Shown here piece after piece: positions 35,195 to 57,482 of a stretch of 57,977 nucleotides of DNA. The notes below the pieces were generated by a model, which made no database searches, was not told the DNA's origin, and saw only the letters and a program-made list of their open reading frames with translations. The stretch is from Candidatus Peregrinibacteria bacterium (GTDB lineage: Bacteria > Patescibacteriota > Gracilibacteria > CAIRYL01), in the NCBI GenBank assembly GCA_016220175.1, contig JACRHZ010000006.1, positions 1-57,977 of the forward strand, written 5' to 3'. How positions within the stretch are numbered: the stretch's first letter is position 1; each line of letters opens with the position of its first letter. Made by a program: the position numbers and the translations under genes.

Positions 35195-37633
35195 TTAAGA
35201 TGATGGTGTTGGTGGTGGCGTTGCTACTGATGTTGGTGCTGCTGGTGCTGCAGCTGTTGCTACTGCACAATATTTACCCAATTCTTGCATTAGTTCTTTT
35301 GCATTATAAGCTGCGTTAAACCTTGCCTTATCTGTGTACCCTCCGTTCCCATCAATGCTTGCGCTTTCATTTTCACTCAAATTATCACGGTCCCAAATGT
35401 AAATATCGGTTCCAAAAGTGTCATTGTCTATTTCTAACAAAAAACTTTTCCCTTTATATTCAAACTTGATTCGTGCAAAGTCATCGTTGTCTTTCCACTC
35501 ATCAGGAGTATAAGTATTCCATTCCCCTTCGTATAATTTAACATTCTGAATTGTATTATTACTTAATTCTCTCATAATCTTCAACATGTTGTTTAGGTTC
35601 TTGTGAAGAGTTGTAGTGCCCTCACTCTCTTTCGGAAGCTCTTTCGTTTTGTATGTTTCAATAATATCTCTCACCGCTCTGATATGTCCCAAAGGAAACT
35701 CTTTTCCATTTGGGTTAATTCTGATCTCCCCATTTTTTGAAATTACTTTAAGACCTTCTTGATACGTTTTTCTTTTTATATCACAAATAGAACTATCACT
35801 GATTTTTGTTACTTCAACAAAATTTCTGTCATTCCGATATGGATTCTGCCTATATAATTTTGCAAACCATTCCTCCGCGCCTTTTTCATTAGTTTGAAAT
35901 TGATATAAATCATATCCTACCTGAAAAATAGGAGATTGAAAATTTGGTGTTTTTTCAATAGCTGTAAAAGGATTTTCAGGAGTCGTGGCTGGTTGTGCTG
36001 GTGCTGCTTCCCTTCCTGTTTCTGCATCCACTGCTGATAAAGTTTGATCTGATGATGATGGTTTTTCTGTTGCCTGCACCGGTGCTTCTTTTGATAAATA
36101 AAACAACGGCATCAGCCCAGTTTCTTTTCCAATCTTCACCTCTACCCACTTATGTTTCTGTTGGCAAGCATCGGAAGTAATTTCTGTATTTACGACCGTT
36201 ACAGGAGTCCCGTTTGGGAATCTCTTCACTTCGCCTGCATCGGTTTTTGACCTCAGAATAAGTTCTCCTCCATTCGTAGTAACCCATAGTGGTTGTTTAT
36301 CAGTTACTTTCACACCCTCACCATCTCCAATAGAATTTGTAGGTTTTGTGCCAAATTTCGCATGATCTTTAAGTTTTTGAGATATATTTTCTGGTTTTGC
36401 TGGTTTTTTTTCTGCTGCAGCTTCAGCAACTACCTTTCCTTCTAAGGGGGCTAGTAATTTTTTAGCTTGAAGGCTGTTTTTCATCTCATCAAAGCTTCTT
36501 ATTTCATTCAGCGAAATTCTGATTTCTTGAGAATTGTTGTAGATGACGAGCTCATTCGTTTTCCCATCTCCATTGGATTCAAGCGATGAACCATGAACGC
36601 TATCAACGAGTCGTAATTTTCCTTTATCGCCAAAATTAAGTATTACTTTATCTGCAATTTTTTCTATTCGCATTGATCCATCTTGAAATTTTATCTCAGC
36701 TCCAGTTTTTGGATCAGAATTAATTCCAGTTGTAACAATTTCTTCTACATTTTGATCGTTTTTATCTTTATACAAAATTTCTACCGGCTTGTTCCTTTTA
36801 GCGCTTTTAATTTTTTCTTTTTGACTTATAATTTGCTCAAAAAAATTCGATATATCTTCAGCATCAAAATTTGAATAATCGGTAATATTCTTTATGTCTC
36901 TGTTTCCCTTCTCTCTACTCACGAGATTTGTAATTGAAAATTTCCCGTCTTGCATATGAAATTCTCCGGTAAATCGATCGCCATCAGGTGCTTTAAATTC
37001 GAATTTTACAAATCCTTTTTTGGGTTTTGATTCTAAATGAACATCTATTGCATCCTTCGGAAATAAAGGTGCGTAAAGTCCGTATTCAAGAGGATTCTCA
37101 ATGGAAGAAACCTCAAATTTTTCTTTTTTGAAAAGTGCTTCAAGTATTGATACCTCTTTCTTAATTTCATCACTTTCATCTTTTTCATATCTTGCAAGAT
37201 CTATTCGTATAGGCGTCATAATTCCTTCAAAATCATATTTCATTTCTGATGTTCCTCTTTTTGCCCACTTATCTAAATCATCCAATTTTTTCCCCCATTC
37301 CTTCATAATTTCATCCATTTCTCGTTGAACTTCTTGTTTCATCGATGTTTTTGCTCCTGCAAGTTCTTCTGCTTTAAGTTGGGCATCTATTGTTCCCGAA
37401 AGAGAGTTAAACACTTCTTTCGCTTTCGCGGTTACTTTTTGCTCATCAGGAATTTTTTCTTCACCTCCTTTTTTTAATCTTTTGTCTTCCACTTTATTAT
37501 CAACTGTTTCTGCCTCGGCAGCATTAAACGCTTCACCTCCTGCTCCTGCATCAAACACCCTCCTCTCCTCCCAAAAAAGCTGCTTTGAAAGAAAATCTTT
37601 TTGCCACACGATATGTTTTTGTATCATTTCCAT
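35195..37633 (-). CDS. Large (812-residue) protein with SH3-like domain, unknown function
   Basis: No signal peptide or membrane helix is evident. The N-terminal ~60 residues are charged and partly disordered (RRVFDAGAGGEAFNAAEAE). The region 60-430 is mixed helix and strand with many Lys and Glu. A bacterial SH3-like domain lies around residues 436-516 (PLWVTTNGGELILRS...NGTPVTVVN...KWVEVKIG). After a Thr/Pro/Ala linker a second folded part follows, and the protein ends in an Ala/Pro/Thr tail. I do not recognise the family. A small helical protein gene lies 15 bp upstream, the same arrangement as at 41.6 and 53.5 kb. Confidence 0.7.
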   Translation of the reverse strand: MEMIQKHIVWQKDFLSKQLFWEERRVFDAGAGGEAFNAAEAETVDNKVEDKRLKKGGEEKIPDEQKVTAKAKEVFNSLSGTIDAQLKAEELAGAKTSMKQEVQREMDEIMKEWGKKLDDLDKWAKRGTSEMKYDFEGIMTPIRIDLARYEKDESDEIKKEVSILEALFKKEKFEVSSIENPLEYGLYAPLFPKDAIDVHLESKPKKGFVKFEFKAPDGDRFTGEFHMQDGKFSITNLVSREKGNRDIKNITDYSNFDAEDISNFFEQIISQKEKIKSAKRNKPVEILYKDKNDQNVEEIVTTGINSDPKTGAEIKFQDGSMRIEKIADKVILNFGDKGKLRLVDSVHGSSLESNGDGKTNELVIYNNSQEIRISLNEIRSFDEMKNSLQAKKLLAPLEGKVVAEAAAEKKPAKPENISQKLKDHAKFGTKPTNSIGDGEGVKVTDKQPLWVTTNGGELILRSKTDAGEVKRFPNGTPVTVVNTEITSDACQQKHKWVEVKIGKETGLMPLFYLSKEAPVQATEKPSSSDQTLSAVDAETGREAAPAQPATTPENPFTAIEKTPNFQSPIFQVGYDLYQFQTNEKGAEEWFAKLYRQNPYRNDRNFVEVTKISDSSICDIKRKTYQEGLKVISKNGEIRINPNGKEFPLGHIRAVRDIIETYKTKELPKESEGTTTLHKNLNNMLKIMRELSNNTIQNVKLYEGEWNTYTPDEWKDNDDFARIKFEYKGKSFLLEIDNDTFGTDIYIWDRDNLSENESASIDGNGGYTDKARFNAAYNAKELMQELGKYCAVATAAAPAAPTSVATPPPTPSS

Positions 37634-37648
37634 TTTGGGGAAATAAAA

Positions 37649-38014
37649 TTATGCGTCACTGAGTTTTTTGAGAAGCGCCTCTTCTCTCTGATCATCTTTT
37701 TTCCTATCTTCACTCTCCGCAACACTTCGAATTTTCTTGAGTTTCTCTTTTTGGAATTTCGTGAGCTTCTTCAAAAAATCCGCATTAATTCTTCCTCGCT
37801 CTTCCCCGGCTTTTTCTTCGATCTCATCGAGCTTTGCATTCGCATCGAGAATTGCTTTCGCGAGTTTGCGCTTTTGATCCGCATTCATCCGCTCCAAATT
37901 CCCGAGCCAAAACGCTTGATCTTTTTTGGAAAGGAGTCGCGTTGCGTCTTCTATAAGTTCTGAAAGATCCACTTCCGCCACTTGAATTTTTTGATTTTTT
38001 TGAGTTTGTGCCAT
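37649..38014 (-). CDS. Small charged all-helical protein, partner gene of the 812-residue protein
   Basis: The 121-residue protein starts at ATG 38014, 20 bases after a TAAAAT box. It is helical and highly charged; LGNLERMNADQKRKLAKAIL (about residues 41-60) resembles LLDILPKLSQEQIQEIGRIL in the gene at 45650 and LRILDELDDEFLEKLMTAVI in the one at 41568. The end is Lys/Glu coiled coil. It lies 15 bp before the large gene, so the two are probably one transcript. The same frame is open upstream into hicA; I treat this as a separate gene because a good promoter lies in between. Confidence 0.65.
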   Translation of the reverse strand: MAQTQKNQKIQVAEVDLSELIEDATRLLSKKDQAFWLGNLERMNADQKRKLAKAILDANAKLDEIEEKAGEERGRINADFLKKLTKFQKEKLKKIRSVAESEDRKKDDQREEALLKKLSDA

Positions 38015-38311
38015 GAACTTTTGATATATATTTCTCCTTATTTTAGCAAAAATCGGGGAAAAATGCAAACTGGATACCCTCATTTGCGAATTCCCTTCTC
38101 GCAATTTATGAAGAGGGATTTCTGCCTGTCTCAAAATACTCATAAGAGTTCCTTTCTTTAGAGATGCATTGTGCATGGGAACGACAACTTGAATATTTTT
38201 TTGTTCATTCACCAAAATAATATGGCTTCCCTTCTGTCGAAGCTTCATAAAACCTTGTTTCCCAAGAAGCTTAACGACTTCTTTTGGAGTAAGAGCGGGA
38301 AGTTTTGACAT
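37649..38311 (-). CDS. hicA: HicA-like toxin whose frame reads on into the downstream gene
   Basis: The first ~72 residues are a clear HicA mRNA interferase: MSKLPALTPKEVVKLLGKQG, then FMKLRQKGSHIILVN with the catalytic histidine, and PMHNASLKKGTLMSILRQA. HicA proteins normally stop about here. Here no stop occurs; the frame crosses ~25 codons of apparent non-coding DNA (including the promoter at 38040) and joins the small helical gene. The product would be 220 residues. Either hicA lost its stop and makes a fusion, or translation ends inefficiently. The start (ATG 38311) lies inside hicB. Confidence 0.75.
   Translation of the reverse strand: MSKLPALTPKEVVKLLGKQGFMKLRQKGSHIILVNEQKNIQVVVPMHNASLKKGTLMSILRQAEIPLHKLREGNSQMRVSSLHFSPIFAKIRRNIYQKFMAQTQKNQKIQVAEVDLSELIEDATRLLSKKDQAFWLGNLERMNADQKRKLAKAILDANAKLDEIEEKAGEERGRINADFLKKLTKFQKEKLKKIRSVAESEDRKKDDQREEALLKKLSDA
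38040..38068 (-). promoter_or_regulatory. Promoter embedded in the hicA reading frame
   Basis: On the minus strand TTGCAT (38063-38068), 17 bp and TAAAAT (38040-38045) give a good sigma70 match. The expected start is near 38033, leaving a leader of ~20 bases before ATG 38014. It would drive the small helical gene and the 812-residue gene. Confidence 0.72.
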
Positions 38312-38564
38312 ATGTTTTTCGTGAGAGTGGATATTCGATATATACTTCCATTTTAATATCTTCTGGAGATCGCATTGGCAAGGGGAGATCGCGTTCAAGA
38401 AGAGTTTCTATGTACAATTCTATTGCTTCTTCGATATTTTTCTTTGCATCTTCAAGAGTTTCTCCTTCTGAAACACATCCGGGGAGTTCAGGAATTTCCA
38501 CAGTATACCCACCCTCCTCTTGAGGAATAAAGATTGCCTGAAATGAATATGGTATTTTCATCAT
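38271..38564 (-). CDS. hicB: HicB-family antitoxin
   Basis: The 97-residue protein has the partial RNase H fold of HicB: YSFQAIFIPQEEGGYTVEIP, ELPGCVSEGETLEDAKKNIE and EAIELYIETLLERDLPLP. The C-terminal ~20 residues (RKTYVKTSRSYSKRSR) are basic and lie in the 41-bp overlap with hicA, in place of the usual DNA-binding helix domain. The antitoxin gene comes first, as in many hicBA modules. It should bind and block HicA. Confidence 0.87.
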   Translation of the reverse strand: MMKIPYSFQAIFIPQEEGGYTVEIPELPGCVSEGETLEDAKKNIEEAIELYIETLLERDLPLPMRSPEDIKMEVYIEYPLSRKTYVKTSRSYSKRSR

Positions 38565-38643
38565 TTTCTGACTGAAGGTATTTCCAGCTTCTCATATTTT
38601 CCCAGAAAAATAAATATTTTCGTAACAAGCCCTGTTTAATCTG

Positions 38644-39480
38644 TTATGTTTCAAATCGCTTGGCTGCCTGAAGAAAAACTGCCGGATAATTTTGAATCCA
38701 TTTTTCTTCCAAAGGATCCTCCAAAAATCGCCCAATATCTTTCATAATTTCCTCGGTTTTTACACTCTCAATCTTTTTTTGAAGGGCGTGAAGAAGTTCA
38801 CGTTTGTTTTGAAACGATACATCTCCTCCTTGTTGTTTTAAAGCCTTGTTCAAATACTCAAAATTGATACCCATTTTTTTGTTGAGATACCAAATGAGGT
38901 CATAAAAGTCCCTTCCTTTTGTATAGGCGCTGTTAAAAACTGCGCAAATTTTCCCGGCGAACATGGTCTCATCCGTGTGTTTTATAATCGGAAAAATTTC
39001 ATCAAATTTTGTGACAAAAAATGTTTCCACTTCATTTTTACTTACTTTTACCGGATTCGTATCTACTTCAATCTTTACATGAATTTTTTGAGCTTTGAGT
39101 GGACTCAGGCGAAAAGCATGAAGTACTTTGCTCACGCGGATGAATGATTTTTGTACTATTTTTTCTTCATCAATACTGAGATCAACTTCAAAATCTGTGT
39201 TTTTCAGAAATGAAACAATGGTTTTATTGAGTTCTTCAAAAGAGTATTTTGGAATTTTCCAGTCGAGAGCAAAATCGAGATCCTCAGAATATCTTTTGAG
39301 ATCATGGCAAATGCGAAGGCACGTTCCGCGCATAAAACTCAGACCCTTTCCATATTTTGACTGATAGATTGCTTTGAGAATCAGAACCTGCAGATACTCG
39401 CGAATAATATTAAAAATCTGCTGTTCGCCGGAAATTCCTTTTTTTCTCGCCTCAGCGATAAGACGTGTAAGATGTTGCAT
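38644..39480 (-). CDS. abiEii: AbiEii-type nucleotidyltransferase toxin
   Basis: The 278-residue protein belongs to the AbiEii/AbiGii family, the toxic half of the type IV AbiE system that protects against phage by modifying tRNA or other RNA. The nucleotidyltransferase signature is MRGTCLRICHDLKRYSEDLDFAL (split: G-T-x-L-R then S-E-D-L-D-F, about residues 50-72). The family segments IHVKIEVDTNP and FNSAYTKGRDFYDLIWYL follow. ATG 39480 is taken as the start. It overlaps the antitoxin gene by 29 bp. Confidence 0.86.
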   Translation of the reverse strand: MQHLTRLIAEARKKGISGEQQIFNIIREYLQVLILKAIYQSKYGKGLSFMRGTCLRICHDLKRYSEDLDFALDWKIPKYSFEELNKTIVSFLKNTDFEVDLSIDEEKIVQKSFIRVSKVLHAFRLSPLKAQKIHVKIEVDTNPVKVSKNEVETFFVTKFDEIFPIIKHTDETMFAGKICAVFNSAYTKGRDFYDLIWYLNKKMGINFEYLNKALKQQGGDVSFQNKRELLHALQKKIESVKTEEIMKDIGRFLEDPLEEKWIQNYPAVFLQAAKRFET

Positions 39481-40063
39481 AGGAATGAAAATTATGAAGC
39501 AGAAAAAGAAGTTTTTTTGAACGAAAAAGTTTTGCATATTGAAAAACTTTTTTAAAATTTATTTCTGTCACCACCGCTTCGAGCCGTGACGATTCCCAAA
39601 ATTCTTTGTTCGAATGAAGTTCCGCGCTGTGGAGATAGAAATAATCCACAAGAGCCTTTTCTTTTTCTGCCATAAGCGAGACAGAATCAAATCCTACAAA
39701 TGCTTCTTTCTTAATTTTCTGATAGGAAAATGTTCCGAGTGACGTTTCAAAATGACGCGGAAGTTTGGGCGTGACCAGTGTATATGTAAACACTGCTTCT
39801 GGAAGAATCCCAGCGCTGCCCAGAACATACTCAAGACCGAAATAACACGGAGAATACAGATTTTTTGCAATTTCAGCCTTCTCGGGAGCAGCGTCAGCAA
39901 ACAGAAATAGTCCTCGTTTTAGAGAAAGAATGTCCCCATTTTTTTTCCATTGGTGGAGCTGAAGATTTATGAGCGCTGGATTTTCAGGAAATGCAACCAG
40001 ATGAGCTTCTTGAGAGCTAAAAATGCCTTTTTTCATTTTTTTTCGAAATTCTTTTAATTTCAT
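39452..40063 (-). CDS. abiEi: AbiEi-type antitoxin / transcriptional regulator
   Basis: The 203-residue protein has an N-terminal winged-helix part (IFSSQEAHLVAFPENPALINLQLHQWKKNGDILSLKRGLF, in two halves around residue 30). The AbiEi family core follows (YSPCYFGLEYVLGSAGILPEAVFTYTLVTP, around residues 70-100; then FSYQKIKKEAFVGF). AbiEi represses its operon and blocks AbiEii without direct binding in known cases. A TATAAT on the minus strand at 40067-40072 lies only 4 bp before the start codon, so the message may be leaderless or start further upstream. Confidence 0.82.
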   Translation of the reverse strand: MKLKEFRKKMKKGIFSSQEAHLVAFPENPALINLQLHQWKKNGDILSLKRGLFLFADAAPEKAEIAKNLYSPCYFGLEYVLGSAGILPEAVFTYTLVTPKLPRHFETSLGTFSYQKIKKEAFVGFDSVSLMAEKEKALVDYFYLHSAELHSNKEFWESSRLEAVVTEINFKKVFQYAKLFRSKKLLFLLHNFHSYATSYTSYR

Positions 40064-40211
40064 TTGATTATAGTTTTTTATAATTTAATAAAATGATACA
40101 TGATAAAAAGACAAGAGTCAAATTTCTCCAGAAATACCTGCAAAAAAGAAGCCTCTTCATTTCTCATAATGAACAAAAATGTATATGTACAGAAACATAA
40201 TACAATTTTGT

Positions 40212-40232
40212 AAATACGGCGACTCCGTATTT
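40212..40232. terminator. Perfect hairpin before the DUF4143 ATPase gene
   Basis: AAATACGG and CCGTATTT pair perfectly around CGACT and are followed by TT. It lies 40 bp before the next start codon in the gap between two divergent genes. It could be a terminator or attenuator, or a protein-binding palindrome. Confidence 0.5.
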
Positions 40233-40271
40233 TTCCTTGATTTTTGATGATGGAATCATTAGAATTCAAGT

Positions 40272-41507: not shown

Positions 41508-41537
41508 AGCTTTTTCCTTTCATTCCTGCTGAAATTT

Positions 41538-41546
41538 TGCTATAAT
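41538..41546 (+). promoter_or_regulatory. Extended -10 promoter of the 1246-residue protein cassette
   Basis: TGCTATAAT is a full extended -10 box, 21 bp before ATG 41568. The -35 position (TTTCAT at 41518-41523) is weak. It would drive the small helical gene and the very large gene after it. Confidence 0.7.
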
Positions 41547-41567
41547 GAGGAGAAATTTTTGCGCATC

Positions 41568-41885
41568 ATGGCGGACCTTATACAAACAAAACTCAACGAC
41601 CAAAAACTCGATATGCTGAAATCAAACACGATTTCTGGCGTGTACGAAGAACAGCGAAAACAAAAAATTCAGCAACTTTCTCTCCTCATCGAAAATGCGC
41701 TTTTTCTCGAGAAAGATGAGGAAAGAAAACGAAAGTGGCTTCGAATTCTCGATGAACTCGATGATGAATTTTTGGAAAAACTCATGACGGCAGTGATTCG
41801 AGAAAATTTGAGGTACAAGAAAAAAGAGAGAGACATTGTCATTGAACTCAATAAAAAAATCCCGACACCTTCATTTCAAAAATAA
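41568..41885 (+). CDS. Small charged all-helical protein, partner gene of the 1246-residue protein
   Basis: The 105-residue protein is helical and charged. The core ALFLEKDEERKRKWLRILD leads into ELDDEFLEKLMTAVIREN (about residues 43-80), followed by KKKERD. This repeats the L-x2-L-x3-D-x-[DE]-x4-L pattern of the other small proteins at 37649, 45650 and 53529. ATG 41568 follows the extended -10 box. The stop codon is 2 bp before the start of the 1246-residue gene, so the pair is one transcript. Confidence 0.68.
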   Translation: MADLIQTKLNDQKLDMLKSNTISGVYEEQRKQKIQQLSLLIENALFLEKDEERKRKWLRILDELDDEFLEKLMTAVIRENLRYKKKERDIVIELNKKIPTPSFQK

Positions 41886-41887: not shown

Positions 41888-44800
41888 ATGGCACATCAGC
41901 AAGATTCATCAACGAAACCAGCGGCAAATACTGAAGTGCTCAAAGAGCAGTCGTCACCTGCTGTAGTAGATCAAGAAGTTCTTGAAAATACTGACAAGGT
42001 AGCGCAACAGATAGAAACTTCTGAAACACTTCCTCCTGAACAATATGCGGCGGAAGTGAGAGAACAGATAGAAAAAACGCCGGAAAAACCCAGCACATAT
42101 CAACGAGTTGAAAAATTTGTAACCACACAGGTTGATACGATGATGAGTGATTTTGAAAAAGGCGATTATGCAAAGGGAAGTATTAAACTCGCAGTTATGT
42201 TCGGTGCGGGAATACTCGTTGCGAAAGGATTGAAAGCGATTTATATAGAAGCGAAGGGAGTTGTCGGATGGTTTACAGAAAGTGTTTTGGGAATTAAAGA
42301 AGGAAGTGAAGGAGGAATATTGGGGTCTATAGTAAAAGGTTTACTCGTTACCACAGGACTCGGTGCACTGGGAATAACCGGCGGAGCTCTTATCGAAGCG
42401 ATGCGAGGAAAGGTGACACTCTCAGAAGTTTTAGCAGCAGCGGCAAAAGGACCGATTGCATTTTTAAAACTCATATATGACAAAGGGATAGCACTGCCGC
42501 CAGAAGTATGGAATTATGTCGCAGCAAAAGTGGCCGGTGCGGCTGGCATTGGTGAAAAAGCAGAGCAAGCAATAGAAGATCTCTTGAAAGACCCGAGTTT
42601 TACAAAAGCTCTTACCGCAGCAAAAGCTCAACTGGAAGGAATTCTCGGACCTTTTGGAATAGAATTCGATTTTCTCAAAAATATCACAGAAAAAGATATC
42701 GTTGACTCGGTTACAGAACTGGAAGGAACTCTTGGAATAGACAAACTCAAAGCGGCGCTTCAGGGGAATTCTGTGGTCATAGCGGGAAAAACAATAAGCA
42801 GTGAGATGATGAAACTTGGTGGAGCCGTTGGTGTTGGTTTCATCCTGTTCCTTATAGGACGCACTCTTTTAAGTCCAACAAAATTAGCAAAACTGGGAAT
42901 AAGTGTAGCAAAACATCTTCCTCTCGCACTTGGAGTATACTTTGGACTAAAAGCTCTCGGCATAGAAATACCTATTGCTGATGATATTGTTCCGAAAGAA
43001 ATTCAGGACGCTGTTAAAATTATAGATGCACCAGAAATACTGAAAGATGTTTTGGAGTTCTTAAAAAGTGGAGAAATTCAAGTCACCATAGGGAAATTCC
43101 TCCAATATCTCAAAGAACATATTGAAATGCTCAGGGAAGATGCGAAAGAAATACCTTTTTTGGGAAATTTTCTACCACTTGATGCAGAAAGTCTGAATAA
43201 TTTAAACCCAATTTCCCTTATAACTCTCATGTGTAAGGGCGGATTGAAGAGTAATGAGTTTCAGGAAGCATTGGTCGGTTTTGGTGAGGGAATTCTTTCT
43301 GTAGGCACCGTAATATTTTTATTAAAGAAAATTGGACTTAGAAAAGCTGTTTGGAAAGGAATGGGAGCATTTCTTCTCTACTGTCTGTACAAAGATTATC
43401 AGAGGATACAGAAGAAAATCTCTGACCAAGATAATGCTGAATTGCAGGAGGCTTTTGGCGATGATGAAAACTATACTCTCCTCTATAAATTTGGCGTTAC
43501 CATTGTGGGAAAGAGCGTGGAACAACTCCATGCATGGCAAGTCAATTTATGCGCTGATATTCTTTCAAAGCTCAAAGCAAACCCAAAAACTTCGCATTTG
43601 GTTGAGAAAATTGATGCTCTCGAGAAAGAAAAAGGATTTCAGCCGTTTTCAGTTAAGTGGATTCAGGGATTTTACGAAATTATTGCAGAAGAAAACAAAA
43701 AAGGTCTTGAGCTGAGAGTCGTTCTTTCAGAGACAGGCATGGCAATTATTGGAAATGGATTTGGAGTAATGTGCAATACTACCAGCGATGTTGTTGGCCT
43801 TTTGTACCATGTGGCCATTGCTCAGGATATAGGTGCTGAAGAGGCTGTTTGTCAATATGGTGGAATCGCCGCTCCATTTATGGTTCTTGGTGGTGTTTTT
43901 CATGGTGGTCACGCCATGGGATTTGGTGTTGCTATGGGATTTGCTGTTCCCGCATATATCACCGTCAAAGCTGGAAAATTTGCACTAAATGTCGGAAAGG
44001 GAGTTGTGCATGCAAGCGAACTTATTGCCCAGAGAGGAGAAGTTGTTGATCAAGTGGGAAAAGAGCTTCGGGATATCCCTGAAAAATTTCTTCGAAAACT
44101 TCCTCTTGGGAAAAAAATACTTGCAAATGAAGGGATTATTGATCTCATGGAGCTGTATGCAAAGCGAGCGAGTATCAAAAAATCCATTGGAATAAATACG
44201 GCAAAGCTCGATACAGTTTATGAAAAACTCGTAAATGAGGCGAAAAGAAGAGGGATTGAGGGAATGCCGTCGACCATGGGGAAAGCTATCGAAGAAATTC
44301 GAGAAGGTGAATATCCTTTTGGAGCATCGAAGATTCATTATTCAAAACCTCTTGATATTGCAGAAATATTTGAAGGAAAAAATCCTCAGCAACTTAGTGA
44401 ATCACTTGAAACAGCAAGAAGAGTTGCTAGCAAGGATGTGGCAGAAAAGTTTAGTGCTATTGGGGAGGCTCGTGCAATAGAAACATTTCAAGCAGGAGGA
44501 CTCACCTCAAGATTTTCTCCTATAGATTTTGAAACCATAAAAAAATTAGACCCGAAAAAAGAAACTAAGGAACTCATAGAAGGTTTTCGAAGAGCTACTG
44601 CACAAGTGGAAGGTGAATTCGCCGGAATGAATCAGATTTTTAAAAAGAATTCAGCGAGTATACAGGGTCTAGCAAATGAAGCTGAAAAAACGAAATATCT
44701 TGAGGAATTAAAACAAGATATTTCTACTTTTCTTGGAAGGAGAGAGAGACAACTTACGGAACTTGAAGCCATATGGAAAAAAATCCCAAGAGGCTTGCGG

Positions 44801-45628
44801 AGAGGAGGATTACGAAATCAGTACAAATTTGCCGTAGAAGGAGCTCGCGGAGGAATTGCCCTGGAGGCGAAAGAAATAGTCAGAGGAAAACTTCGTTTTT
44901 CGATAGGATTAGCTGGAGTTATGATGGCAGTAAGAGCCTTTAGTGAGTACAAAAACAACCCTGAAGAAGAATTACTAAGTATCTTTCAGCGATTGGGGCC
45001 GGAAGCATTGCAACTTGTTGTTGATGTCGCTCCGATTACAGGAACACTTTCCATGGGCTATAATGTTATTTATGGAAAAGAACGTTTCACGGGACGAGAC
45101 GTAGGTCGCTTATCGAGTTTAGGATGGGGGATTGTCAATCTTTTGAGTGATGCGGGAACAATTGCTGCACTTGTTGGAAGTGCAGGCACAGCAAGTGCCG
45201 CTGTTCCACTTGAAATGGGAGGGAAGATAGCTCTTCTCGCCACGAAAGGAGGAAGGGCAGCAGAAACTGCAGCTAAAATCATGAAAGAATGGGGGCCCAT
45301 AAAAAAGATCATTGAAACGAAAGGAGTAGGAAAATTTTTAGAAGAAGCGGGAAAGTTTTTGAAAGCTGGAAAAGGAACAATGGCAGAGGGACTAGAAAAG
45401 AGAGCATTTCGAACTGGACTTGCCGTCACAGCAGCTTCCATAGCGCTCCCTTACGGATATTCATATTTGTTTGACACAGATGCGCCTGTTCCAGAAGAAA
45501 TCGCAAAAGAAATTCTCGAGGAGAAATCATCAGGGCAGGAGGATGTTTCTCTTGAAGCAGAAAGTTCTGAAGCATTGGTCCCTGAAACTCCGAGCTCAGC
45601 ACCTTTTGGAAGAATTCTTCCCAACTAA
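41888..45628 (+). CDS. Very large (1246-residue) protein with many hydrophobic segments, unknown function
   Basis: The protein has a Glu/Gln/Thr-rich N-terminal ~75 residues and no signal peptide. It then contains about nine hydrophobic, Gly/Ala-rich stretches spread over its length, for example LAVMFGAGILVAKGLKAIYI, VGFILFLIGRTLL, MVLGGVFHGGHAMGFGVAMG and LAVTAASIALPYGYSYLF. Charged helical segments lie between them. The C-terminus is acidic and Ser/Pro-rich. Such amphipathic helices could insert in a membrane, like large pore-forming or contact-dependent effectors, but this is inference. I recognise no family. It is flanked by two small helical genes. Confidence 0.7.
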   Translation: MAHQQDSSTKPAANTEVLKEQSSPAVVDQEVLENTDKVAQQIETSETLPPEQYAAEVREQIEKTPEKPSTYQRVEKFVTTQVDTMMSDFEKGDYAKGSIKLAVMFGAGILVAKGLKAIYIEAKGVVGWFTESVLGIKEGSEGGILGSIVKGLLVTTGLGALGITGGALIEAMRGKVTLSEVLAAAAKGPIAFLKLIYDKGIALPPEVWNYVAAKVAGAAGIGEKAEQAIEDLLKDPSFTKALTAAKAQLEGILGPFGIEFDFLKNITEKDIVDSVTELEGTLGIDKLKAALQGNSVVIAGKTISSEMMKLGGAVGVGFILFLIGRTLLSPTKLAKLGISVAKHLPLALGVYFGLKALGIEIPIADDIVPKEIQDAVKIIDAPEILKDVLEFLKSGEIQVTIGKFLQYLKEHIEMLREDAKEIPFLGNFLPLDAESLNNLNPISLITLMCKGGLKSNEFQEALVGFGEGILSVGTVIFLLKKIGLRKAVWKGMGAFLLYCLYKDYQRIQKKISDQDNAELQEAFGDDENYTLLYKFGVTIVGKSVEQLHAWQVNLCADILSKLKANPKTSHLVEKIDALEKEKGFQPFSVKWIQGFYEIIAEENKKGLELRVVLSETGMAIIGNGFGVMCNTTSDVVGLLYHVAIAQDIGAEEAVCQYGGIAAPFMVLGGVFHGGHAMGFGVAMGFAVPAYITVKAGKFALNVGKGVVHASELIAQRGEVVDQVGKELRDIPEKFLRKLPLGKKILANEGIIDLMELYAKRASIKKSIGINTAKLDTVYEKLVNEAKRRGIEGMPSTMGKAIEEIREGEYPFGASKIHYSKPLDIAEIFEGKNPQQLSESLETARRVASKDVAEKFSAIGEARAIETFQAGGLTSRFSPIDFETIKKLDPKKETKELIEGFRRATAQVEGEFAGMNQIFKKNSASIQGLANEAEKTKYLEELKQDISTFLGRRERQLTELEAIWKKIPRGLRRGGLRNQYKFAVEGARGGIALEAKEIVRGKLRFSIGLAGVMMAVRAFSEYKNNPEEELLSIFQRLGPEALQLVVDVAPITGTLSMGYNVIYGKERFTGRDVGRLSSLGWGIVNLLSDAGTIAALVGSAGTASAAVPLEMGGKIALLATKGGRAAETAAKIMKEWGPIKKIIETKGVGKFLEEAGKFLKAGKGTMAEGLEKRAFRTGLAVTAASIALPYGYSYLFDTDAPVPEEIAKEILEEKSSGQEDVSLEAESSEALVPETPSSAPFGRILPN

Positions 45629-45649: not shown

Positions 45650-45880
45650 ATGATCACTCCTCAAGAGTTCGCCGGCTACCTTCAAAACTGCAGTCTCGAT
45701 CCAAAAACAAAAGTTTTATTGCTCGATATCCTTCCAAAGCTCTCTCAAGAGCAAATCCAAGAAATAGGACGTATTTTAGAAAAAGATCAAAACCAGCTTC
45801 TGCAGTATTTAAAAGAGGCGGAGCTCAAAGCAGATGTACTTACGGAGCAAGTAACAAAGGAAATAGAGGATTCAAAATGA
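45650..45880 (+). CDS. Small helical protein after the 1246-residue gene
   Basis: The 76-residue protein has the segment LLLDILPKLSQEQIQEIGRIL (21 residues ending near 43; key residues L, L, P, L, S, EQ, I, I), followed by EKDQNQLLQYLKEAELKAD. It is the shortest and cleanest version of the helical motif found in the partner genes. It lies 21 bp after the 1246-residue gene on the same strand. Confidence 0.62.
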   Translation: MITPQEFAGYLQNCSLDPKTKVLLLDILPKLSQEQIQEIGRILEKDQNQLLQYLKEAELKADVLTEQVTKEIEDSK

Positions 45881-51761: not shown

Positions 51762-52883
51762 TTAATTTAGATAAATCCCGGGATCTCTCTTAACTCCATT
51801 TATGATCACCTCAAAATGGCAATGCGTTCCTGTGACGCCATATACTCGTCCTGTATTCCCCATAGCAGAAATTACCTGCCCTTGAGACACGGTCTGTCCT
51901 ACAGAAACATAGAGTTCTCGATTATGACCATAAAGAGTCTTCATCCCGTTCCCATGATCAATAATTACCTCGTTTCCATATCCACCATTCCATCCATACG
52001 CAGCTTTTTCTACAACACCATCAGCCGCGGCATAAATATTTCCTCCCGATCTATTCGCAATATCATAGCCATAGTGACCACTATGAAACTTTTGAGTGAT
52101 CGTTCCTGCTGTAGGCCAGATGAGTTTTCCATTAGCAGCAACTTCTGAACTCGGATCTCCAGGAATACCAGTTGGATATTTTGGCTGCGTCACGACAATA
52201 CGTGGAGGAGGTTCTGGCATTTTTGCGCCGGGAACAATAAGATCCGCTCCCTCCGAAAGCTCTTCTGAGGCTTCGAGTTTATTTTGAGCAATTATATCCT
52301 CTTCTTTTACACTATATTTTGCTGCAATTTTTTTCACCGATTCGCCTTTTTTTACCGTGTGTACGAGCCCGTTTACTGCAATAACTTTGAGGATTTGCCC
52401 TGTTTTGAGATAATTTGAATTCCCCATTTCATTGCTCTCGGAAATGGTTCTTCTCGTGACACCAAATTTTTGAGCAATGCTAGAAATAGTATCTCCTTTT
52501 TCAACCTCGTAATAGACAATATCCGTTAAACCTGTTCTATTCCCTTCAGCATTGACAATCTCTGGTTTCATAATAAATCCATCATTTCCAAGGCTCGCTA
52601 CTTTCTCAAGTGTCGACGATACTTCGGGAGCATCGGGCACGAGCCAAAACTCCTCTTCTGTACTCACCACCTGGGGGAGAATTGCAAGGGAGAAAAATCC
52701 AACTGTGCTAAAGGAAATTACTCTCCAGAAAAAGCTCCTCTCAATCTTCTTTTCTCGAAGAGGTAATGCACCCTCAATACGATTCCACGTCGAAAAAAAT
52801 GGGGAAAAGACTTTAATGCGTGCATGTCTTTTCCTTTGAGCGGCTCTATTCACGCTAGAGATATCTGAGTTTAAAAAACTCAT
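51762..52883 (-). CDS. LysM-M23 peptidoglycan endopeptidase, membrane anchored
   Basis: The 373-residue protein has a basic ~48-residue cytoplasmic part, one membrane helix (FFWRVISFSTVGFFSLAILP, about residues 50-69), two LysM domains (about 123-167 and 172-217; VEKGDTISSIAQKFGV and VKKGESVKKIAAKYSV), a proline linker and an M23 peptidase domain (about 253-370). Zinc ligands are in SGHYGYDIA (H-x3-D) and GTHCHFEV (H-x-H). It should cut peptide cross-links in the wall. It converges with dxr; its promoter lies ~100 bp upstream. Confidence 0.93.
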   Translation of the reverse strand: MSFLNSDISSVNRAAQRKRHARIKVFSPFFSTWNRIEGALPLREKKIERSFFWRVISFSTVGFFSLAILPQVVSTEEEFWLVPDAPEVSSTLEKVASLGNDGFIMKPEIVNAEGNRTGLTDIVYYEVEKGDTISSIAQKFGVTRRTISESNEMGNSNYLKTGQILKVIAVNGLVHTVKKGESVKKIAAKYSVKEEDIIAQNKLEASEELSEGADLIVPGAKMPEPPPRIVVTQPKYPTGIPGDPSSEVAANGKLIWPTAGTITQKFHSGHYGYDIANRSGGNIYAAADGVVEKAAYGWNGGYGNEVIIDHGNGMKTLYGHNRELYVSVGQTVSQGQVISAMGNTGRVYGVTGTHCHFEVIINGVKRDPGIYLN

Positions 52884-52986
52884 TGAGTTGGGTTAGACGC
52901 CCTCTCCCTTCCCTTTCCCATACCCTTTTTAACTTCTCGACGGGAGATTTTATCCACTTTTTACAAGAAAGGCAAGAGAATATTCT

Positions 52987-53015
52987 CATTAAGATATCTT
53001 CTGTGAATTTGTCAA
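52987..53015 (-). promoter_or_regulatory. Possible promoter of the LysM-M23 gene
   Basis: On the minus strand a perfect TTGACA (53010-53015) is followed by 17 bp and a weak TTAATG (52987-52992). The leader would be ~100 bases. Confidence 0.45.
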
Positions 53016-53020
53016 CCCCT

Positions 53021-53078
53021 CAGAATTCTCAGAAAAAATTCTCAAAACTCAGAATTCATCATTTCAGAATTCTGGAAA
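53021..53078. repeat. AGAATTCT short repeats
   Basis: CAGAATTCT occurs at 53021 and 53064, with TCAGAATTCA between them and AAAATTCTCA variants. The repeats lie in the 355-bp gap between the M23 gene and the next cassette. No gene is seen in the gap. Confidence 0.4.
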
Positions 53079-53185
53079 ACTCGGCTTTAAAAGCTACGAT
53101 TTCCTCTTTCTTATTTTTATAAGTTCTGAAAAGTTTTTGAAAAATATCGGCTTCAAAATGTCAAATTGCTCCTCTTTCTTTTCCT

Positions 53186-53214
53186 TTGAAAAAATCTCAT
53201 TTTTGTGCTAGAAT
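53186..53214 (+). promoter_or_regulatory. Promoter of the 53-57 kb cassette
   Basis: TTGAAA (53186-53191), 17 bp and TAGAAT (53209-53214), with an extended TGC before the -10. The -10 box ends only 3 bp before ATG 53218, so translation more likely starts at ATG 53239. Confidence 0.75.
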
Positions 53215-53238
53215 ACTATGAATACTTCACTGAAATTT

Positions 53239-53532
53239 ATGGAATCAGAGCCAATGTGGAGGGGAAATATACGGATGACAGCGCAGCAAAGGCGAAATAT
53301 GCGGGCAAAAATAATACGGGGCGGGAAAATAGCAGATGAAATCCGAGAGATATCTAAAAAACATCATAGTGAGCTTGAAGTCCCGATGGCCGAAACAAAA
53401 ATGGATACCATTTTCCAAAAAGAATCCGCTTTAATAGGAACAAAAACAGCTCCCTTTAAAAATCCACCAAAACAACAACTGACATTTCTGCAAAAAATTC
53501 TCAACTTTTTAAAACATATTTTTCTTCCATGA
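53239..53532 (+). CDS. Small basic protein leading the 53-57 kb cassette
   Basis: The 97-residue protein is rich in Arg and Lys in its first half (NIRMTAQQRRNMRAKIIRGG). It ends in an amphipathic segment (LTFLQKILNFLKHIFLP). No family is recognised. I prefer ATG 53239 because the promoter's transcript start would fall at or after ATG 53218. Its stop overlaps the start of the next small gene (ATGA), so the cassette is translationally coupled. Confidence 0.6.
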   Translation: MESEPMWRGNIRMTAQQRRNMRAKIIRGGKIADEIREISKKHHSELEVPMAETKMDTIFQKESALIGTKTAPFKNPPKQQLTFLQKILNFLKHIFLP

Positions 53533-53831
53533 CTACAGACGAACTCGTCGCGCTCATCGAAAACGCTCCTTTCCCTCAGGCAGAAAAGGACAGGCTGATA
53601 ACGCTTGCATGCGTGGCAGACGAAGAACACAAAGGTCATATTTCTACTCTCGTGATCACGTTTACGAAGCGCATTAATGACGAAAGATCAGCAATGATTC
53701 CCAAAGAAGAGGCGGACAAAATACGCGCAAAGGGAAGAGAAATGCAGAAACTGATTCGGAAGAAGGGTGAGGAGATTTATCGGCAGGCGGAAACAGGACA
53801 ATTAAGCAATTTTGAAGCACAACTTTCTTAA
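53529..53831 (+). CDS. Small helical protein, partner gene of the 636-residue protein
   Basis: The 100-residue protein begins TTDELVALIENAPFPQAEKD, then RLITLACVADEEHKGHISTL and a charged coil (KADKIRAK-like ADKIRAKGREMQKLIRKKGE). It has the same plan as the small genes at 37649, 41568 and 45650: an N-terminal helix, a L-x2-L-x3-D-E-[EQ]-x4-I helix and a charged tail. It lies 5 bp before the 636-residue gene and overlaps its upstream neighbour by 4 bp. Confidence 0.65.
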   Translation: MTTDELVALIENAPFPQAEKDRLITLACVADEEHKGHISTLVITFTKRINDERSAMIPKEEADKIRAKGREMQKLIRKKGEEIYRQAETGQLSNFEAQLS

Positions 53832-53836
53832 AACAT

Positions 53837-55747
53837 ATGGCACAAGAAGAGCAAAAACCAAAGGCAGAGGAAGAAAAAAATAAAGTGAATGCCAATCTAG
53901 ATCTGACAGAAGCTGCCGTTGCAGCATTGGAAAAAACCAAAAAAACAGAAGTGTCTGAAGACGCACTCATAAGTGTTTCTGGAGTTTTACAAAATGATAT
54001 AAATCAAATTAACGATTTGATTTCCACGCTTAAAGATAGTCCTGAAAAAATCGAAGCACAGCAACAGTGGCAGAGTTTTTTGGAAAAGAAAGGATTAATT
54101 TCGGATAACGACAGCAGTGATGTACTTCAGTGTTTACAGAAGGAAGGAAATATTACAAATATTGGTCAACTCCGAATCGCGATCCAAACGCTCGAGACAG
54201 AGATGAATGAGAGTATTGACGCCGCGAAAAAAAATGAAAAGGCGAAACTTTCGACACAAGAGAAAGGAATAAGAGCAATAGAAGGTTTTGTGACGAAGTT
54301 TACAGATAAACTCCCTTTTGGAGAATCGATCGCGAGCGGAATTTTTTTGAAGCTTATCGAGTGGATAAAGGAAGGTTTTGGATGGGCAATTGGGACAGAG
54401 CTCGACAGTTTTTATAATAAATTGTGGATAAAAGCCAATCTCAACGCAACCATAAAACTTATGGAAAGCAAAAAATATGTTGTGCAGGCACAAGACTGGC
54501 AAAAAGGTATCATCGCTTTGAGGGATAATGTTCTTGGCGTACCTGCAAATAAAGATAAAGATTTCATGAAGGAAATGAATGCCCGCTTAGATGATGCGAA
54601 TTTTAAAAAGTTTGCTGAATTAATGAGAACGAAAGGATATTCGATTAAGCCTGATGATTTAACATTGAGTTCAATCGAAACATTTGGAACAGGAGATTTT
54701 ATTAAAACTTTAGATGGGAAGATAAAAGGGGGAGCAACGGAAGAAGCTGTACGAAAATTTATTGATGAGGAAAAGGGGAAAATTAAAATTGTAAATGAGG
54801 AGAATAAAAAAGTTTTTGCAGAAAAGATAAAAGACGAAAAGTCGGTAGGAAAATTATTAGTAATTTATCAATTTGCACAAAAAGGAATTAAGGGAACAGA
54901 AGAAGAATTCGATCTGGAGATCAAATCTGGAACACCTGAAAAGGTAAAAAAAATAGCCGCAAGCGAGAGTCTCATTCCAGTGCTTACTGAAAAAATTGCA
55001 GAGGAACTGCATGTGGGAAAGGTAGCAGTTGATGATGATGGCGCCACAATAAAAAATTTGCAGATGGTGGGAAATAAACAACTGCCAATAGATAAAATTG
55101 CTCTGCTAGAAGGAGATAAATTTAAAATTACACTTTCGGCACCATTAGAAAATGGTGGTAATACTCTAGATTTGGATCCCATACAAGAAACTTCACTCGT
55201 TCCTGTGGTCGATGGCATTAAAAAACTTTGGCAGGGCGATGTTACTCACGGAATAACAGAAGCAGGTAAAGCGAAAACCGAGCTTGATAAAGCAAAAGGA
55301 CAAATCGATAAAATGTATAATTCCTTAAAGGGAAAATCCTTAGAAGATGTTATTGCTGCTATTACTGGTGCTGAGTATGCCAAGGAACAAATTATTAATA
55401 TTGCTCAAGAAAAATATGCGGCGACATTTGGAGTTCCAGAAGCGAATATAAAAGTAGAAATCGACGATAAAAATGAAGTCACAATAAAATTAAATCAAAT
55501 TGGAACAACTCCTCCTCTGAAAGATGTCGTCATCACAACCAAAGATGCAAAAACGTCGTGGACCGTAAAAGTGGGAGTTGAAAGTTTCGAGATAACAACC
55601 GAATCAGATCTTCTCGCTAAAATTACTGAATTAAAAGGCGGAGTGGCAACAACAACTCCAGCTCAATCTCCAGTAAGACCCGCAGTTCAACCTGCACCAG
55701 CACCAGCTCCAGCAGCTGCTCCTGGCGCTCCAGCACAAGCACAGTAA
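53837..55747 (+). CDS. Large (636-residue) protein, unknown function
   Basis: The protein is Lys/Glu-rich and lacks a signal peptide. The first ~150 residues are helical (NLDLTEAAVAALEKTKKTEV). A short Gly/Ile-rich amphipathic stretch follows (FGESIASGIFLKLIEWIKEG, about residue 155), then mixed regions and a C-terminal alternating strand region around residues 520-600. The end is a Pro/Ala tail (PAPAPAPAAAPGAPAQAQ), as in the 812-residue protein. I recognise no family. It is the third large protein with a small helical gene directly upstream. Confidence 0.68.
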   Translation: MAQEEQKPKAEEEKNKVNANLDLTEAAVAALEKTKKTEVSEDALISVSGVLQNDINQINDLISTLKDSPEKIEAQQQWQSFLEKKGLISDNDSSDVLQCLQKEGNITNIGQLRIAIQTLETEMNESIDAAKKNEKAKLSTQEKGIRAIEGFVTKFTDKLPFGESIASGIFLKLIEWIKEGFGWAIGTELDSFYNKLWIKANLNATIKLMESKKYVVQAQDWQKGIIALRDNVLGVPANKDKDFMKEMNARLDDANFKKFAELMRTKGYSIKPDDLTLSSIETFGTGDFIKTLDGKIKGGATEEAVRKFIDEEKGKIKIVNEENKKVFAEKIKDEKSVGKLLVIYQFAQKGIKGTEEEFDLEIKSGTPEKVKKIAASESLIPVLTEKIAEELHVGKVAVDDDGATIKNLQMVGNKQLPIDKIALLEGDKFKITLSAPLENGGNTLDLDPIQETSLVPVVDGIKKLWQGDVTHGITEAGKAKTELDKAKGQIDKMYNSLKGKSLEDVIAAITGAEYAKEQIINIAQEKYAATFGVPEANIKVEIDDKNEVTIKLNQIGTTPPLKDVVITTKDAKTSWTVKVGVESFEITTESDLLAKITELKGGVATTTPAQSPVRPAVQPAPAPAPAAAPGAPAQAQ

Positions 55748-55768
55748 TCTCCTCCTCAATAATTCCCT

Positions 55769-55936
55769 ATGCCCGCAAAAACACAAACATCATCACAAAT
55801 TCAAAAACTCCAAACTCTTGAGAAAGATAATGAAAAGCTGAGAATGGATATAAAACTCACGCAAATGCACATTGATCTCACTGCGAAAAACATTCAAATT
55901 TTTGAAGAATTTTTACATTCATTAAAAAATGGTTGA
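55769..55936 (+). CDS. Small coiled-coil protein, 55 residues
   Basis: The protein is a single predicted coiled coil (KLQTLEKDNEKLRMDIKLTQ, then MHIDLTAKNIQIFEEFLHSL). It starts at ATG 55769, 21 bp after the 636-residue gene, and overlaps the start of the 517-residue gene by 8 bp, so it is probably translated with it. No family is recognised. Confidence 0.6.
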   Translation: MPAKTQTSSQIQKLQTLEKDNEKLRMDIKLTQMHIDLTAKNIQIFEEFLHSLKNG

Positions 55937-57482
55937 TTCTCCTACAAATGTCGGCGAAATACAAAATCCAGAACTTGAAGGGCTGCAAAAGCAACTTGAT
56001 GGACTTCAGGTCGACAAAGAACAGCTTTCAAAACTTTCGATAGAAAAGAAGAATGAACTGCATGAAAAGAGCAGGGAAATGTTCGGAGTTGTGGGGAGAA
56101 ATATGGAAGAAATCATGAAGCAAGCGAAAAATGCTCCTGAAGGAAAATTTAAGCCACTTAAAGATTTTTTGGATCTCAGAGAGAAATATAAACTTTCAGA
56201 AGACAGTAAATATTTGTTTCAAACAAAAGGATTTTCAGAAATAGTGAGAAAAAGCGATCCAGAGAGTCTTTTGGCAAGCGTTGCTACACTTACAACGCAG
56301 ACGGTCGAAGGAAAGGGAATTCTTGTCTACGAAGCGGAATTTCCAGCAGGTACTGATGCTCTTCAGAATGTCGGTCTTGGCGATATTTTGCCGATAAAAT
56401 ATAAATTTGTACGCGTTTGGAAAGAGGGCTCAGATGTTCCGATTTGGGGAAGGCGAGGAAGCGGAGAATTTCGCGGTCAAAATAGAAACGGATATGTTGA
56501 TGAAAGTGGGAAATATATTCCTATCGTAAATGGAGATAGATTTGAGCCGTTTGAACGCCTTCCATCGTCACCAAGCGTTGCAAAAGTCGGTGAAACTCCA
56601 CAAAATTCTTTAGGAATTCCTGCACCATTCGCCACTCTCAAGGAGACAGATTTCCCTGATGCAGCAAAAGAGCAGGAGCTTCGAGAAAAATATGCAAACA
56701 GTCTTGAGGAAGATGAGCTCCTGCAGGATTATTTTTCTGAGGACAATAGAAATATAGATGTCTTTACTACGCAATATACAAAAGATCATCCTGGATATGA
56801 ATTCCCAAAAAATGTGATGACGAGAATTAGACTCGTTGAAGATTTTGTAAAACCTGGAGAAAGGCTTGAAGATAAAATACCGACATTGAGCTCTGTGGAT
56901 ATTTTACAAATGAGAAAGGATTGGGGCGGATGGGAAGTGATGGAATCGGTTTTTAAATCGACGAAAATTTTACATATAGAAAAATCAGCGGAAGTGAAAA
57001 GTAAAATTGCAACCGCAGTAGATTCTCTCCCAAATGAGAACAATCTTGTCCATCTTTTTGGAAAAGAAGACCTAAAAGCGGTGATGATCGCAATAGCAAA
57101 TAATGAATCTGGATTCCAGCCATTTGAAATATCTACTACTGGATGTATGGGAATTTTCCAGTTTAATAGAGGAAATACTGAAGATTTGCATCTCAATCCA
57201 TTTAATATCGATTCCTCAATTGAAGGATTTTTAAAACTGTGGGAGGCAAATTACAATTATCATGAGAACGAACTCTCCAAGACATTTACACTCACCGAAA
57301 ACCTTCAAGATGCCCTTATTGTGTCGCATTATGCTGGCGTTGGAAGAACTCTCAAAAGTCAGTGGCATGAGGGACCATCTTTAGGAAAAATTGATCCTAA
57401 CAATCCACAATCATTGAATGATTATCGTGATAAAATCCGCGGAATTATGACTAATACCGCGAGAGAAAAGACAAAAAACTAA
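55929..57482 (+). CDS. Large (517-residue) protein with C-terminal lytic-transglycosylase-like domain
   Basis: The N-terminal ~90 residues are coiled and charged. A middle region follows (about 115-205, GTDALQNVGLGDILPIKYKF, VRVWKEGSDVPIWGRRGSGE) whose strand pattern I cannot assign. From about residue 372 an SLT/lysozyme-like domain appears: AVMIAIANNESGFQPFEIS with the likely catalytic glutamate, GCMGIFQFNRGN, and DALIVSHYAGVGRTLKS. It should cut peptidoglycan glycan strands if exported, yet no signal peptide is visible. It ends the 53-57 kb cassette. Confidence 0.75.
   Translation: MVDSPTNVGEIQNPELEGLQKQLDGLQVDKEQLSKLSIEKKNELHEKSREMFGVVGRNMEEIMKQAKNAPEGKFKPLKDFLDLREKYKLSEDSKYLFQTKGFSEIVRKSDPESLLASVATLTTQTVEGKGILVYEAEFPAGTDALQNVGLGDILPIKYKFVRVWKEGSDVPIWGRRGSGEFRGQNRNGYVDESGKYIPIVNGDRFEPFERLPSSPSVAKVGETPQNSLGIPAPFATLKETDFPDAAKEQELREKYANSLEEDELLQDYFSEDNRNIDVFTTQYTKDHPGYEFPKNVMTRIRLVEDFVKPGERLEDKIPTLSSVDILQMRKDWGGWEVMESVFKSTKILHIEKSAEVKSKIATAVDSLPNENNLVHLFGKEDLKAVMIAIANNESGFQPFEISTTGCMGIFQFNRGNTEDLHLNPFNIDSSIEGFLKLWEANYNYHENELSKTFTLTENLQDALIVSHYAGVGRTLKSQWHEGPSLGKIDPNNPQSLNDYRDKIRGIMTNTAREKTKN

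What the first reader, a model, noticed from the sequence alone, without database searches (positions are those of the whole stretch)
35195..57482. Repeated cassettes of a small helical protein gene placed directly before a very large unknown protein gene
Three times in 22 kb a 100-121-residue, charged, all-helical protein gene sits 2-15 bp before a 636-1246-residue protein of unknown family: 37649/35195 on the minus strand, 41568/41888 with a third small gene at 45650, and 53529/53837 followed by 55769/55929. The small proteins share a helix pattern L-x2-L-x3-[DS]-x-[DE]-[QF] (ERMNADQKRKL, DELDDEFLEKL, PKLSQEQIQEI), while the large partners differ strongly. Each cassette has its own promoter. 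A conserved small partner with variable large partners resembles a chaperone-effector or adaptor-cargo system. One large protein carries a peptidoglycan-cleaving domain without a signal peptide, and one has many amphipathic hydrophobic stretches. Export through a non-Sec route is possible and is inference.
Basis: partly seen in the sequence, partly recalled or inferred. Interest (0 to 1): 0.8.

Follow-up and report, generated by a model that had tools for sequence, protein, structure and literature searches.

The report
Small helical partners of tagged giant proteins
Gracilibacteria, a group of tiny and mostly uncultured bacteria, carry a previously undescribed family of small helical proteins whose genes are often placed directly before genes for very large proteins; some of the large proteins cut cell walls and many share a short N-terminal tag instead of an ordinary secretion signal, which hints at an unknown way of moving big proteins to the cell surface.

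Summary
S1 (37649-38014), S2 and S2b belong to one helical family (65, 19 and 36 bits; 0 of 500 shuffles reach these scores). S3 is marginal (11.9 bits) and S4 (55 aa) is not a member. Relatives occur in 234 of 242 Gracilibacteria/Peregrinibacteria genomes searched. One near-universal core copy usually stands apart from a following large gene. The variant copies precede a gene of at least 600 aa in 13 of 33 cases, against 15 of 680 for other small genes (p = 8e-12). No Pfam, NCBIfam, PHROG, PDB-fold or viral relative was found.

A new point emerged. P0009 and about 40 large proteins elsewhere share an N-terminal motif, [E/P]-x-R-[LMI]-[VI]-[FW], at residues 8-29, with no hydrophobic signal peptide. 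Several motif carriers have peptidoglycan-cleaving (SLT, M23, glucosaminidase, phage-type lysozyme) or Ig/cadherin domains. Searching with the motif alone recovered further small-large pairs.

Best reading: the small proteins are adaptors for large, Sec-independent surface or wall-acting proteins. Pairing is shown; adaptor function and export are inferred, and the export machine is unknown. The closest working analogue is Lap targeting factors with LXG effectors, but this is not a member of that system.

The parts
37649..38014 (-). S1 (P0001), 121-aa small helical family member, first gene of cassette 1
   Evidence: 65.5 bits to a family profile built without window sequences, 0/500 shuffles; AlphaFold model all helical, pLDDT 75
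38036..38051 (-). extended -10 promoter TTTTGCTAAAATAAGG of cassette 1
   Evidence: exact match only here and before S2 in the whole genome
35195..37633 (-). P0009, 812-aa large partner; no signal peptide, no Pfam family
37553..37570 (-). N-terminal motif E-E-R-R-V-F, residues 22-27 of P0009
   Evidence: same class of motif in about 40 large proteins of the class
41535..41550 (+). promoter TTTTGCTATAATGAGG of cassette 2
41568..41885 (+). S2 (P0002), 105-aa small family member
   Evidence: 18.8 bits, 0/500 shuffles; likely orthologs L144, L160, L161 in other genomes of the same family
41888..45628 (+). P0008, 1246-aa large partner with four hydrophobic stretches (102-120, 151-169, 306-324, 461-480)
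   Evidence: no Pfam, PHROG or PDB relative
45650..45880 (+). S2b (P0003), 76-aa small family member 21 bp after P0008
   Evidence: 36.3 bits, 0/500 shuffles
53186..53214 (+). promoter-like TTGAAA-17-TAGAAT with TG extension before cassette 3
   Evidence: ATG of S3a lies within a few bases of the -10, so probably leaderless
53218..53532 (+). S3a (P0011), 104-aa charged small protein; family membership not supported
   Evidence: 3.3 bits to the family profile, 42/500 shuffles as good; weak pairwise similarity to S1, E 1e-4
53529..53831 (+). S3 (P0004), 100-aa small protein, marginal family member
   Evidence: 11.9 bits, best of 500 shuffles 11.7
53837..55747 (+). P0007, 636-aa large partner, no recognised family
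55769..55936 (+). S4 (P0005), 55-aa small protein overlapping P0006 by 8 bp; not a family member
   Evidence: 1.9 bits, 347/500 shuffles as good
55929..57482 (+). P0006, 517-aa large partner without signal peptide
   Evidence: distant homologs in G008 and G127 carry the N-terminal motif
57075..57194 (+). SLT (lytic transglycosylase) domain of P0006
   Evidence: Pfam PF01464, E 2.2e-5, 24.5 bits against a cut-off of 21.3

Best explanation
Shown: Gracilibacteria/Peregrinibacteria have a class-wide family of small helical proteins, with one conserved core copy and several divergent variants per genome. The variants are often encoded directly before single large, mutually unrelated proteins. Many of these large proteins, and large proteins encoded upstream of the core gene, start with a short motif, [E/P]-x-R-[LMIR]-[VI]-[FW], 8-29 residues from the N-terminus and have no Sec signal, yet some carry wall-cleaving or extracellular-type domains. 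Inferred: each small protein binds its large partner during or after synthesis, probably near its N-terminus, keeps it soluble and inactive, and hands it to a Sec-independent export route at the cell surface, where the cargo remodels the cell's own wall or acts on a neighbouring cell. The three cassettes of the window would be three such adaptor-cargo pairs. The motif is present in P0009 only; P0006-P0008 would be recognised in another way.
For: Family. Pairing above chance: (p 8e-12). Motif enriched in partners: 13/35 against 19/592 (p 8e-10), with much of the remaining background being upstream neighbours of the core gene. The E at -2, not part of the first selection, is found in 26 of 40. 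A motif-only profile search recovered new small-large pairs (L200, L203, L217; own-genome C63 weakly). Motif carriers have SLT (L122 just below the Pfam cut-off, L210, L213), M23+SLT (L064), glucosaminidase (L118), phage-type lysozyme (L149) and cadherin/Ig (L202) domains; calpain-type protease domains occur in partners without the motif. None of 42 has an N-terminal hydrophobic segment. All-helical fold. Analogy: small helical Lap proteins encoded upstream of LXG toxins are export-targeting factors (PMC9600955).
Against: No interaction or export was tested. Many motif proteins have no detectable small gene next to them. P0006-P0008 lack the motif, and so do most signal-less wall hydrolases of the class. 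The universal core copy is usually not followed by a large gene. No secretion machine is reliably linked: T2SSE/PilB/PilT genes lie within about 1.5 kb of a family member in four lineages against roughly two expected (my estimate from the places). Most large partners have no recognised domain.
Confidence: 0.45

Rival explanations
1. Dedicated chaperones or inhibitors without an export role: the small proteins keep large, aggregation-prone or dangerous proteins (autolysins, proteases, membrane-active proteins) soluble and inactive in the cytoplasm; release is by lysis or by an unrelated route.
For: Same pairing and helical fold; P0008 has four hydrophobic stretches; wall hydrolases without signal peptides.
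Against: Does not explain the shared N-terminal motif across unrelated large proteins or the Ig/cadherin domains in a signal-less protein.
Confidence: 0.25
2. Structural or regulatory housekeeping family: the universal core copy has a general cell-biological role and variants beside large genes arose by duplication into expanding operons, with no specific partner binding.
For: Core in nearly all genomes in a conserved housekeeping neighbourhood (ligA, mnmA-like, GTPase and relA-like genes, read by eye); many core copies have no large gene downstream.
Against: Variants track large genes at 29 times the odds of other small genes; large genes also flank the core on the upstream side.
Confidence: 0.15
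3. Toxin with cognate immunity or antitoxin: the small gene neutralises the large toxin.
For: Hydrolase, protease and lipase domains in or beside the large genes; small-before-large order resembles antitoxin-toxin operons; HicAB lies next to S1.
Against: Core copy is universal and apart from a downstream large gene; one family pairs with unrelated enzymatic domains, whereas immunity proteins usually diversify with the toxin domain (inference).
Confidence: 0.08
4. Phage-derived tail-assembly chaperone plus tape-measure protein pairs.
For: Small helical gene before a huge protein with hydrophobic segments and lytic transglycosylase domains resembles that arrangement (own knowledge); P0006 has weak PHROG matches to endolysin and lytic tail protein.
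Against: No relative in 2.9 million viral contigs; no PHROG family for S1, S2b, S3, P0008 or P0009; no other tail genes seen in the loci; class-wide distribution.
Confidence: 0.05

Closest known systems
Lap1/Lap2 (DUF3130/DUF3958) targeting factors with LXG effectors of the type VIIb secretion system
   Same: One or two small all-helical proteins encoded directly upstream of a large protein with a conserved N-terminal targeting region and variable remainder; no Sec signal (PMC9600955).
   Different: No WxG in 43 small members; no Pfam or NCBIfam match; the N-terminal tag is a short ExR[L][VI][F/W] motif, not an LXG domain; cargo includes wall hydrolases; the family is essentially restricted to Gracilibacteria; the T7SS ATPase was not examined.
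VirB1-type wall hydrolases of the Patescibacteria type IV secretion system
   Same: SLT and M23 domain proteins of CPR bacteria linked to a secretion machine (PMC12102498).
   Different: Here the hydrolases are paired with small helical genes and a motif; that paper reports VirB6 absent or scarce and VirB3/VirB4-type genes mostly not clustered in Gracilibacteria; no T4SS cluster was seen at the cassettes.
Type III secretion chaperone-effector pairs
   Same: Small cytoplasmic partner gene beside a large substrate gene (own knowledge).
   Different: No sequence or fold match; all-helical with a long C-terminal helix; types III, IV, VI and VII systems were not detected in freshwater CPR genomes in PMC9166423.
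Giant surface proteins of predatory Gracilibacteria relatives (Vampirococcus)
   Same: Genomes rich in very large proteins of unknown family (PMC8080830).
   Different: The passages read describe no small partner family and no N-terminal motif.

Membership tests
Gracilibacteria small helical family (defined here) | Profile match with the LPxMTxEQ turn, better than shuffled controls | tested here: met
   S1, S2b, S2 met; S3 marginal; S3a and S4 not met
Lap/LXG type VIIb targeting complex | WXG100-like small proteins with a WxG turn | tested here: not met
   0 of 43 family members hold WxG; no fold match
Lap/LXG type VIIb targeting complex | LXG domain at the N-terminus of the large partner | tested here: not met
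   No Pfam LXG match in the partners scanned
Lap/LXG type VIIb targeting complex | EssC/EccC-type ATPase in the genome | not tested
Phage tail chaperone and tape-measure pair | Relatives in phages or neighbouring tail genes | tested here: not met
   locus tables
Lytic transglycosylase (SLT) family | Pfam SLT match over the curated cut-off | tested here: met
   P0006 24.5 bits against 21.3
Sec-secreted wall hydrolase | N-terminal signal peptide or membrane anchor | tested here: not met
   P0006 and the 42 motif proteins have no hydrophobic N-terminal stretch
Type IV pilus or type II secretion substrate system | Genetic linkage of small family members to PilB/PilT/GspE ATPase genes | tested here: inconclusive
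   four lineages within about 1.5 kb against roughly two expected
Adaptor-cargo system | Physical binding of small to large partner and an effect on export | not testable with these tools
   needs co-folding or experiment

The most novel reading that the evidence does not exclude
A previously unknown protein export pathway of Gracilibacteria: an N-terminal [E/P]-x-R-[LM]-[VI]-[FW] tag and dedicated small helical adaptors deliver giant, Sec-independent proteins (wall hydrolases, proteases, Ig-repeat proteins) to the surface or into neighbouring cells.
Probability: 0.35. Interest if true: 0.92.

Novelty: new variant of a known kind. Interest (0 to 1): 0.76.

Why it matters
How host-dependent CPR bacteria deliver proteins to their partners or prey is an open question, and their genomes are full of giant proteins of unknown function. 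A class-wide small partner family plus a short N-terminal tag gives a sequence handle: it predicts which large proteins form one functional class, including wall-cutting enzymes that lack signal peptides, and makes an export hypothesis directly testable.

Tried and rejected
Known-family searches for the small proteins (Pfam, NCBIfam, PHROGs, PDB sequence and fold, viral folds and contigs) gave only chance-level or scattered weak hits. The pairwise similarity of S3a to S1 (E 1e-4) did not survive the profile test. S4 as a family member was rejected. A special link to type IV pilus or type II ATPases looked attractive (L122, L142, L159, PilT beside the core in the TGA-recoded lineage) but is not clearly above expectation once lineages are counted. 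The idea that all signal-less wall hydrolases carry the motif was rejected: 3 of the roughly 17 signal-less hits in a family-wide scan have it. The shared promoter is probably the ordinary extended -10 type of this lineage, since C7 and S3a have similar ones. Literature searches found no description of this family or motif.
Full report
1. Where it is. The window is contig C6 of a 1.49 Mb draft genome. Named relatives of the small family are Candidatus Gracilibacteria, Peregrinibacteria and Peribacteria metagenome-assembled genomes, so the class is the Gracilibacteria group of the CPR/Patescibacteria.

2. The observation. Gene order and spacings are as reported, with corrections. S1 is 121 aa (37649-38014); the longer ORF is HicA read through in frame. 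Cassette 3 is a five-gene operon (S3a, S3, P0007, S4, P0006). A profile built from sequences outside the window accepts S1 (65.5 bits), S2b (36.3) and S2 (18.8), finds S3 marginal (11.9 against a best shuffle of 11.7), and rejects S3a and S4.

3. The family. S1 alone found relatives in 34 of 60 related genomes. An alignment of these found members in 234 of 242 genomes of the class. In a phylum-wide sample, all 26 class genomes scored, while only 15 of 261 others gave weak hits, mostly to a short part of the profile. Three forms occur: a core copy (about 130-200 aa, 100-150 bits, one per genome; C51 in this genome), a form with a proline/glycine-rich N-terminus (C7 here), and divergent variants such as S1, S2, S2b and C44 here. 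AlphaFold gives short helices followed by a long C-terminal helix: pLDDT 88 for the conserved 70 residues, 75 for S1. Foldseek finds no solved or viral structure below E 1. Pfam and NCBIfam have no family for it.

4. Pairing with large genes. Among members with enough flanking sequence, 21 of 33 variants are followed on the same strand, almost without gap, by a gene of at least 250 aa and 13 by one of at least 600 aa. Other small genes in the same loci score 94 and 15 of 680 (p 3e-10 and 8e-12). Partners range from about 300 to 1894 aa. They are mostly unrelated to each other; in one genus two orthologs keep both ends (62-63% identity) around a diverged middle. The core copy is followed by a gene of at least 250 aa in 11 of 71 cases, but in the cluster beside ligA it often closes a run of one to four large genes. 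The loci were chosen because they hold family members; the background genes come from the same loci.

5. The N-terminal motif. P0009 begins MEMIQKHIVWQKDFLSKQLFWEERRVFDAG and the C44 partner MKHIQKLHCWQKWSFENFSYEKRRIFDGE. The same kind of ending, [E/P]-x-R-[LMIR]-[VI]-[FW], lies 8-29 residues from the start of large proteins across the class. By a first regular expression it is present in 13 of 35 partners against 19 of 592 other genes (p 8e-10), and many of those 19 are large genes just upstream of core copies. In 40 aligned cases E stands at -2 in 26, although E was not part of the first selection, and F or L at -4 in 22; the later profile search did include E, so this is only partly independent. 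A profile of the motif alone recovered new large proteins, three with a family member immediately upstream (L200, L203, L217) and, weakly, a further own-genome case (C63, L214). None of 42 listed proteins has a hydrophobic N-terminal stretch.

6. What the large proteins are. Most have no known domain. Among motif carriers: SLT (L122 just under the Pfam cut-off; L213, L210), M23+SLT (L064), glucosaminidase (gene upstream of the core in L118, E 2e-26), phage-type lysozyme (gene upstream of the core in L149, E 1.5e-30), and cadherin/Ig repeats (L202). Among partners without the motif: SLT (P0006) and calpain-type protease (L138, and weakly L135); a GDSL lipase gene lies upstream of one cassette. 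Distant homologs of P0006 in G008 and G127 carry the motif. These domains normally work outside the cytoplasm (established knowledge), yet the proteins lack Sec signals. The class also has SLT proteins with ordinary membrane anchors.

7. Mechanism. Shown: a related small family, non-random pairing, a shared tag, wall-acting or extracellular domains in some large proteins, and no signal peptide. Inferred: the small protein is an adaptor or chaperone for its large partner, and the tag or partner complex is read by a Sec-independent exporter. Candidate machines are the type IV pilus/type II-like ATPases and the VirB4-type system of CPR. Linkage to the former is suggestive in a few loci but not significant; the latter was not tested. 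P0006, P0007 and P0008 lack the motif, so the motif cannot be the only recognition element.

8. Comparison. The layout works like LXG effectors with Lap targeting factors (PMC9600955), but the defining WxG and LXG features are absent, so it is not filed as a member. Phage tail chaperone and tape-measure pairs were considered and disfavoured. Earlier papers note giant proteins and many signal-less predicted secreted proteins in Gracilibacteria and relatives (PMC8080830, PMC6851277) but the passages read describe no such family or tag.

9. Verdict. It is a new protein family with a new associated tag. The adaptor-export function is plausible (about 0.45) and unproven.

Noticed in passing
window 37649-38398 (-): HicA (next to HicB, 38271-38564) has no stop codon of its own and runs in frame into S1; the S1 promoter lies inside the read-through stretch. 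Either the toxin frame has lost its end or a HicA-S1 fusion can be made.
   Followed up: partly
L053, L054, L055, L064, L045 (upstream of the core gene, beside ligA): A second conserved small gene of about 116-165 aa (LNxPxxxxxxxxxxxFLxxVxxKIExxxINLxxPSSLxNxxVYDxL) opens the core cluster; it may be a second partner.
   Followed up: no
L125 and L129: Orthologous cassettes in one genus: the large proteins (1893 and 1806 aa) are about 63% identical at both ends but diverged in the middle, a hypervariable centre between conserved ends.
   Followed up: no
G018, G019, G021, G030, G039, G047, G054 and the f11 genomes (for example L223, L230, L241): Conserved genes contain many in-frame TGA codons, so several lineages of this class read TGA as sense; ORF calls with table 11 break there.
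   Followed up: partly
window 24530-29596 (-): 1688-aa protein with an apparent Sec signal and S-layer-homology-like repeats at its C-terminus: a conventional surface protein in the same genome as the signal-less ones (read by eye, not searched).
   Followed up: no
L040 6577-9368 (contig C44 of the same genome): Further own-genome cassette: 121-aa small gene, 596-aa and 182-aa large genes, both large ones with the N-terminal motif; a T2SSE ATPase gene lies about 8 kb away on the same contig.
   Followed up: partly
L126, L148, L149, L150 and L041 (C51): ECF-type sigma factor with FecR-like gene pairs recur near core or variant small genes (read by eye); possible co-regulation, not tested.
   Followed up: no
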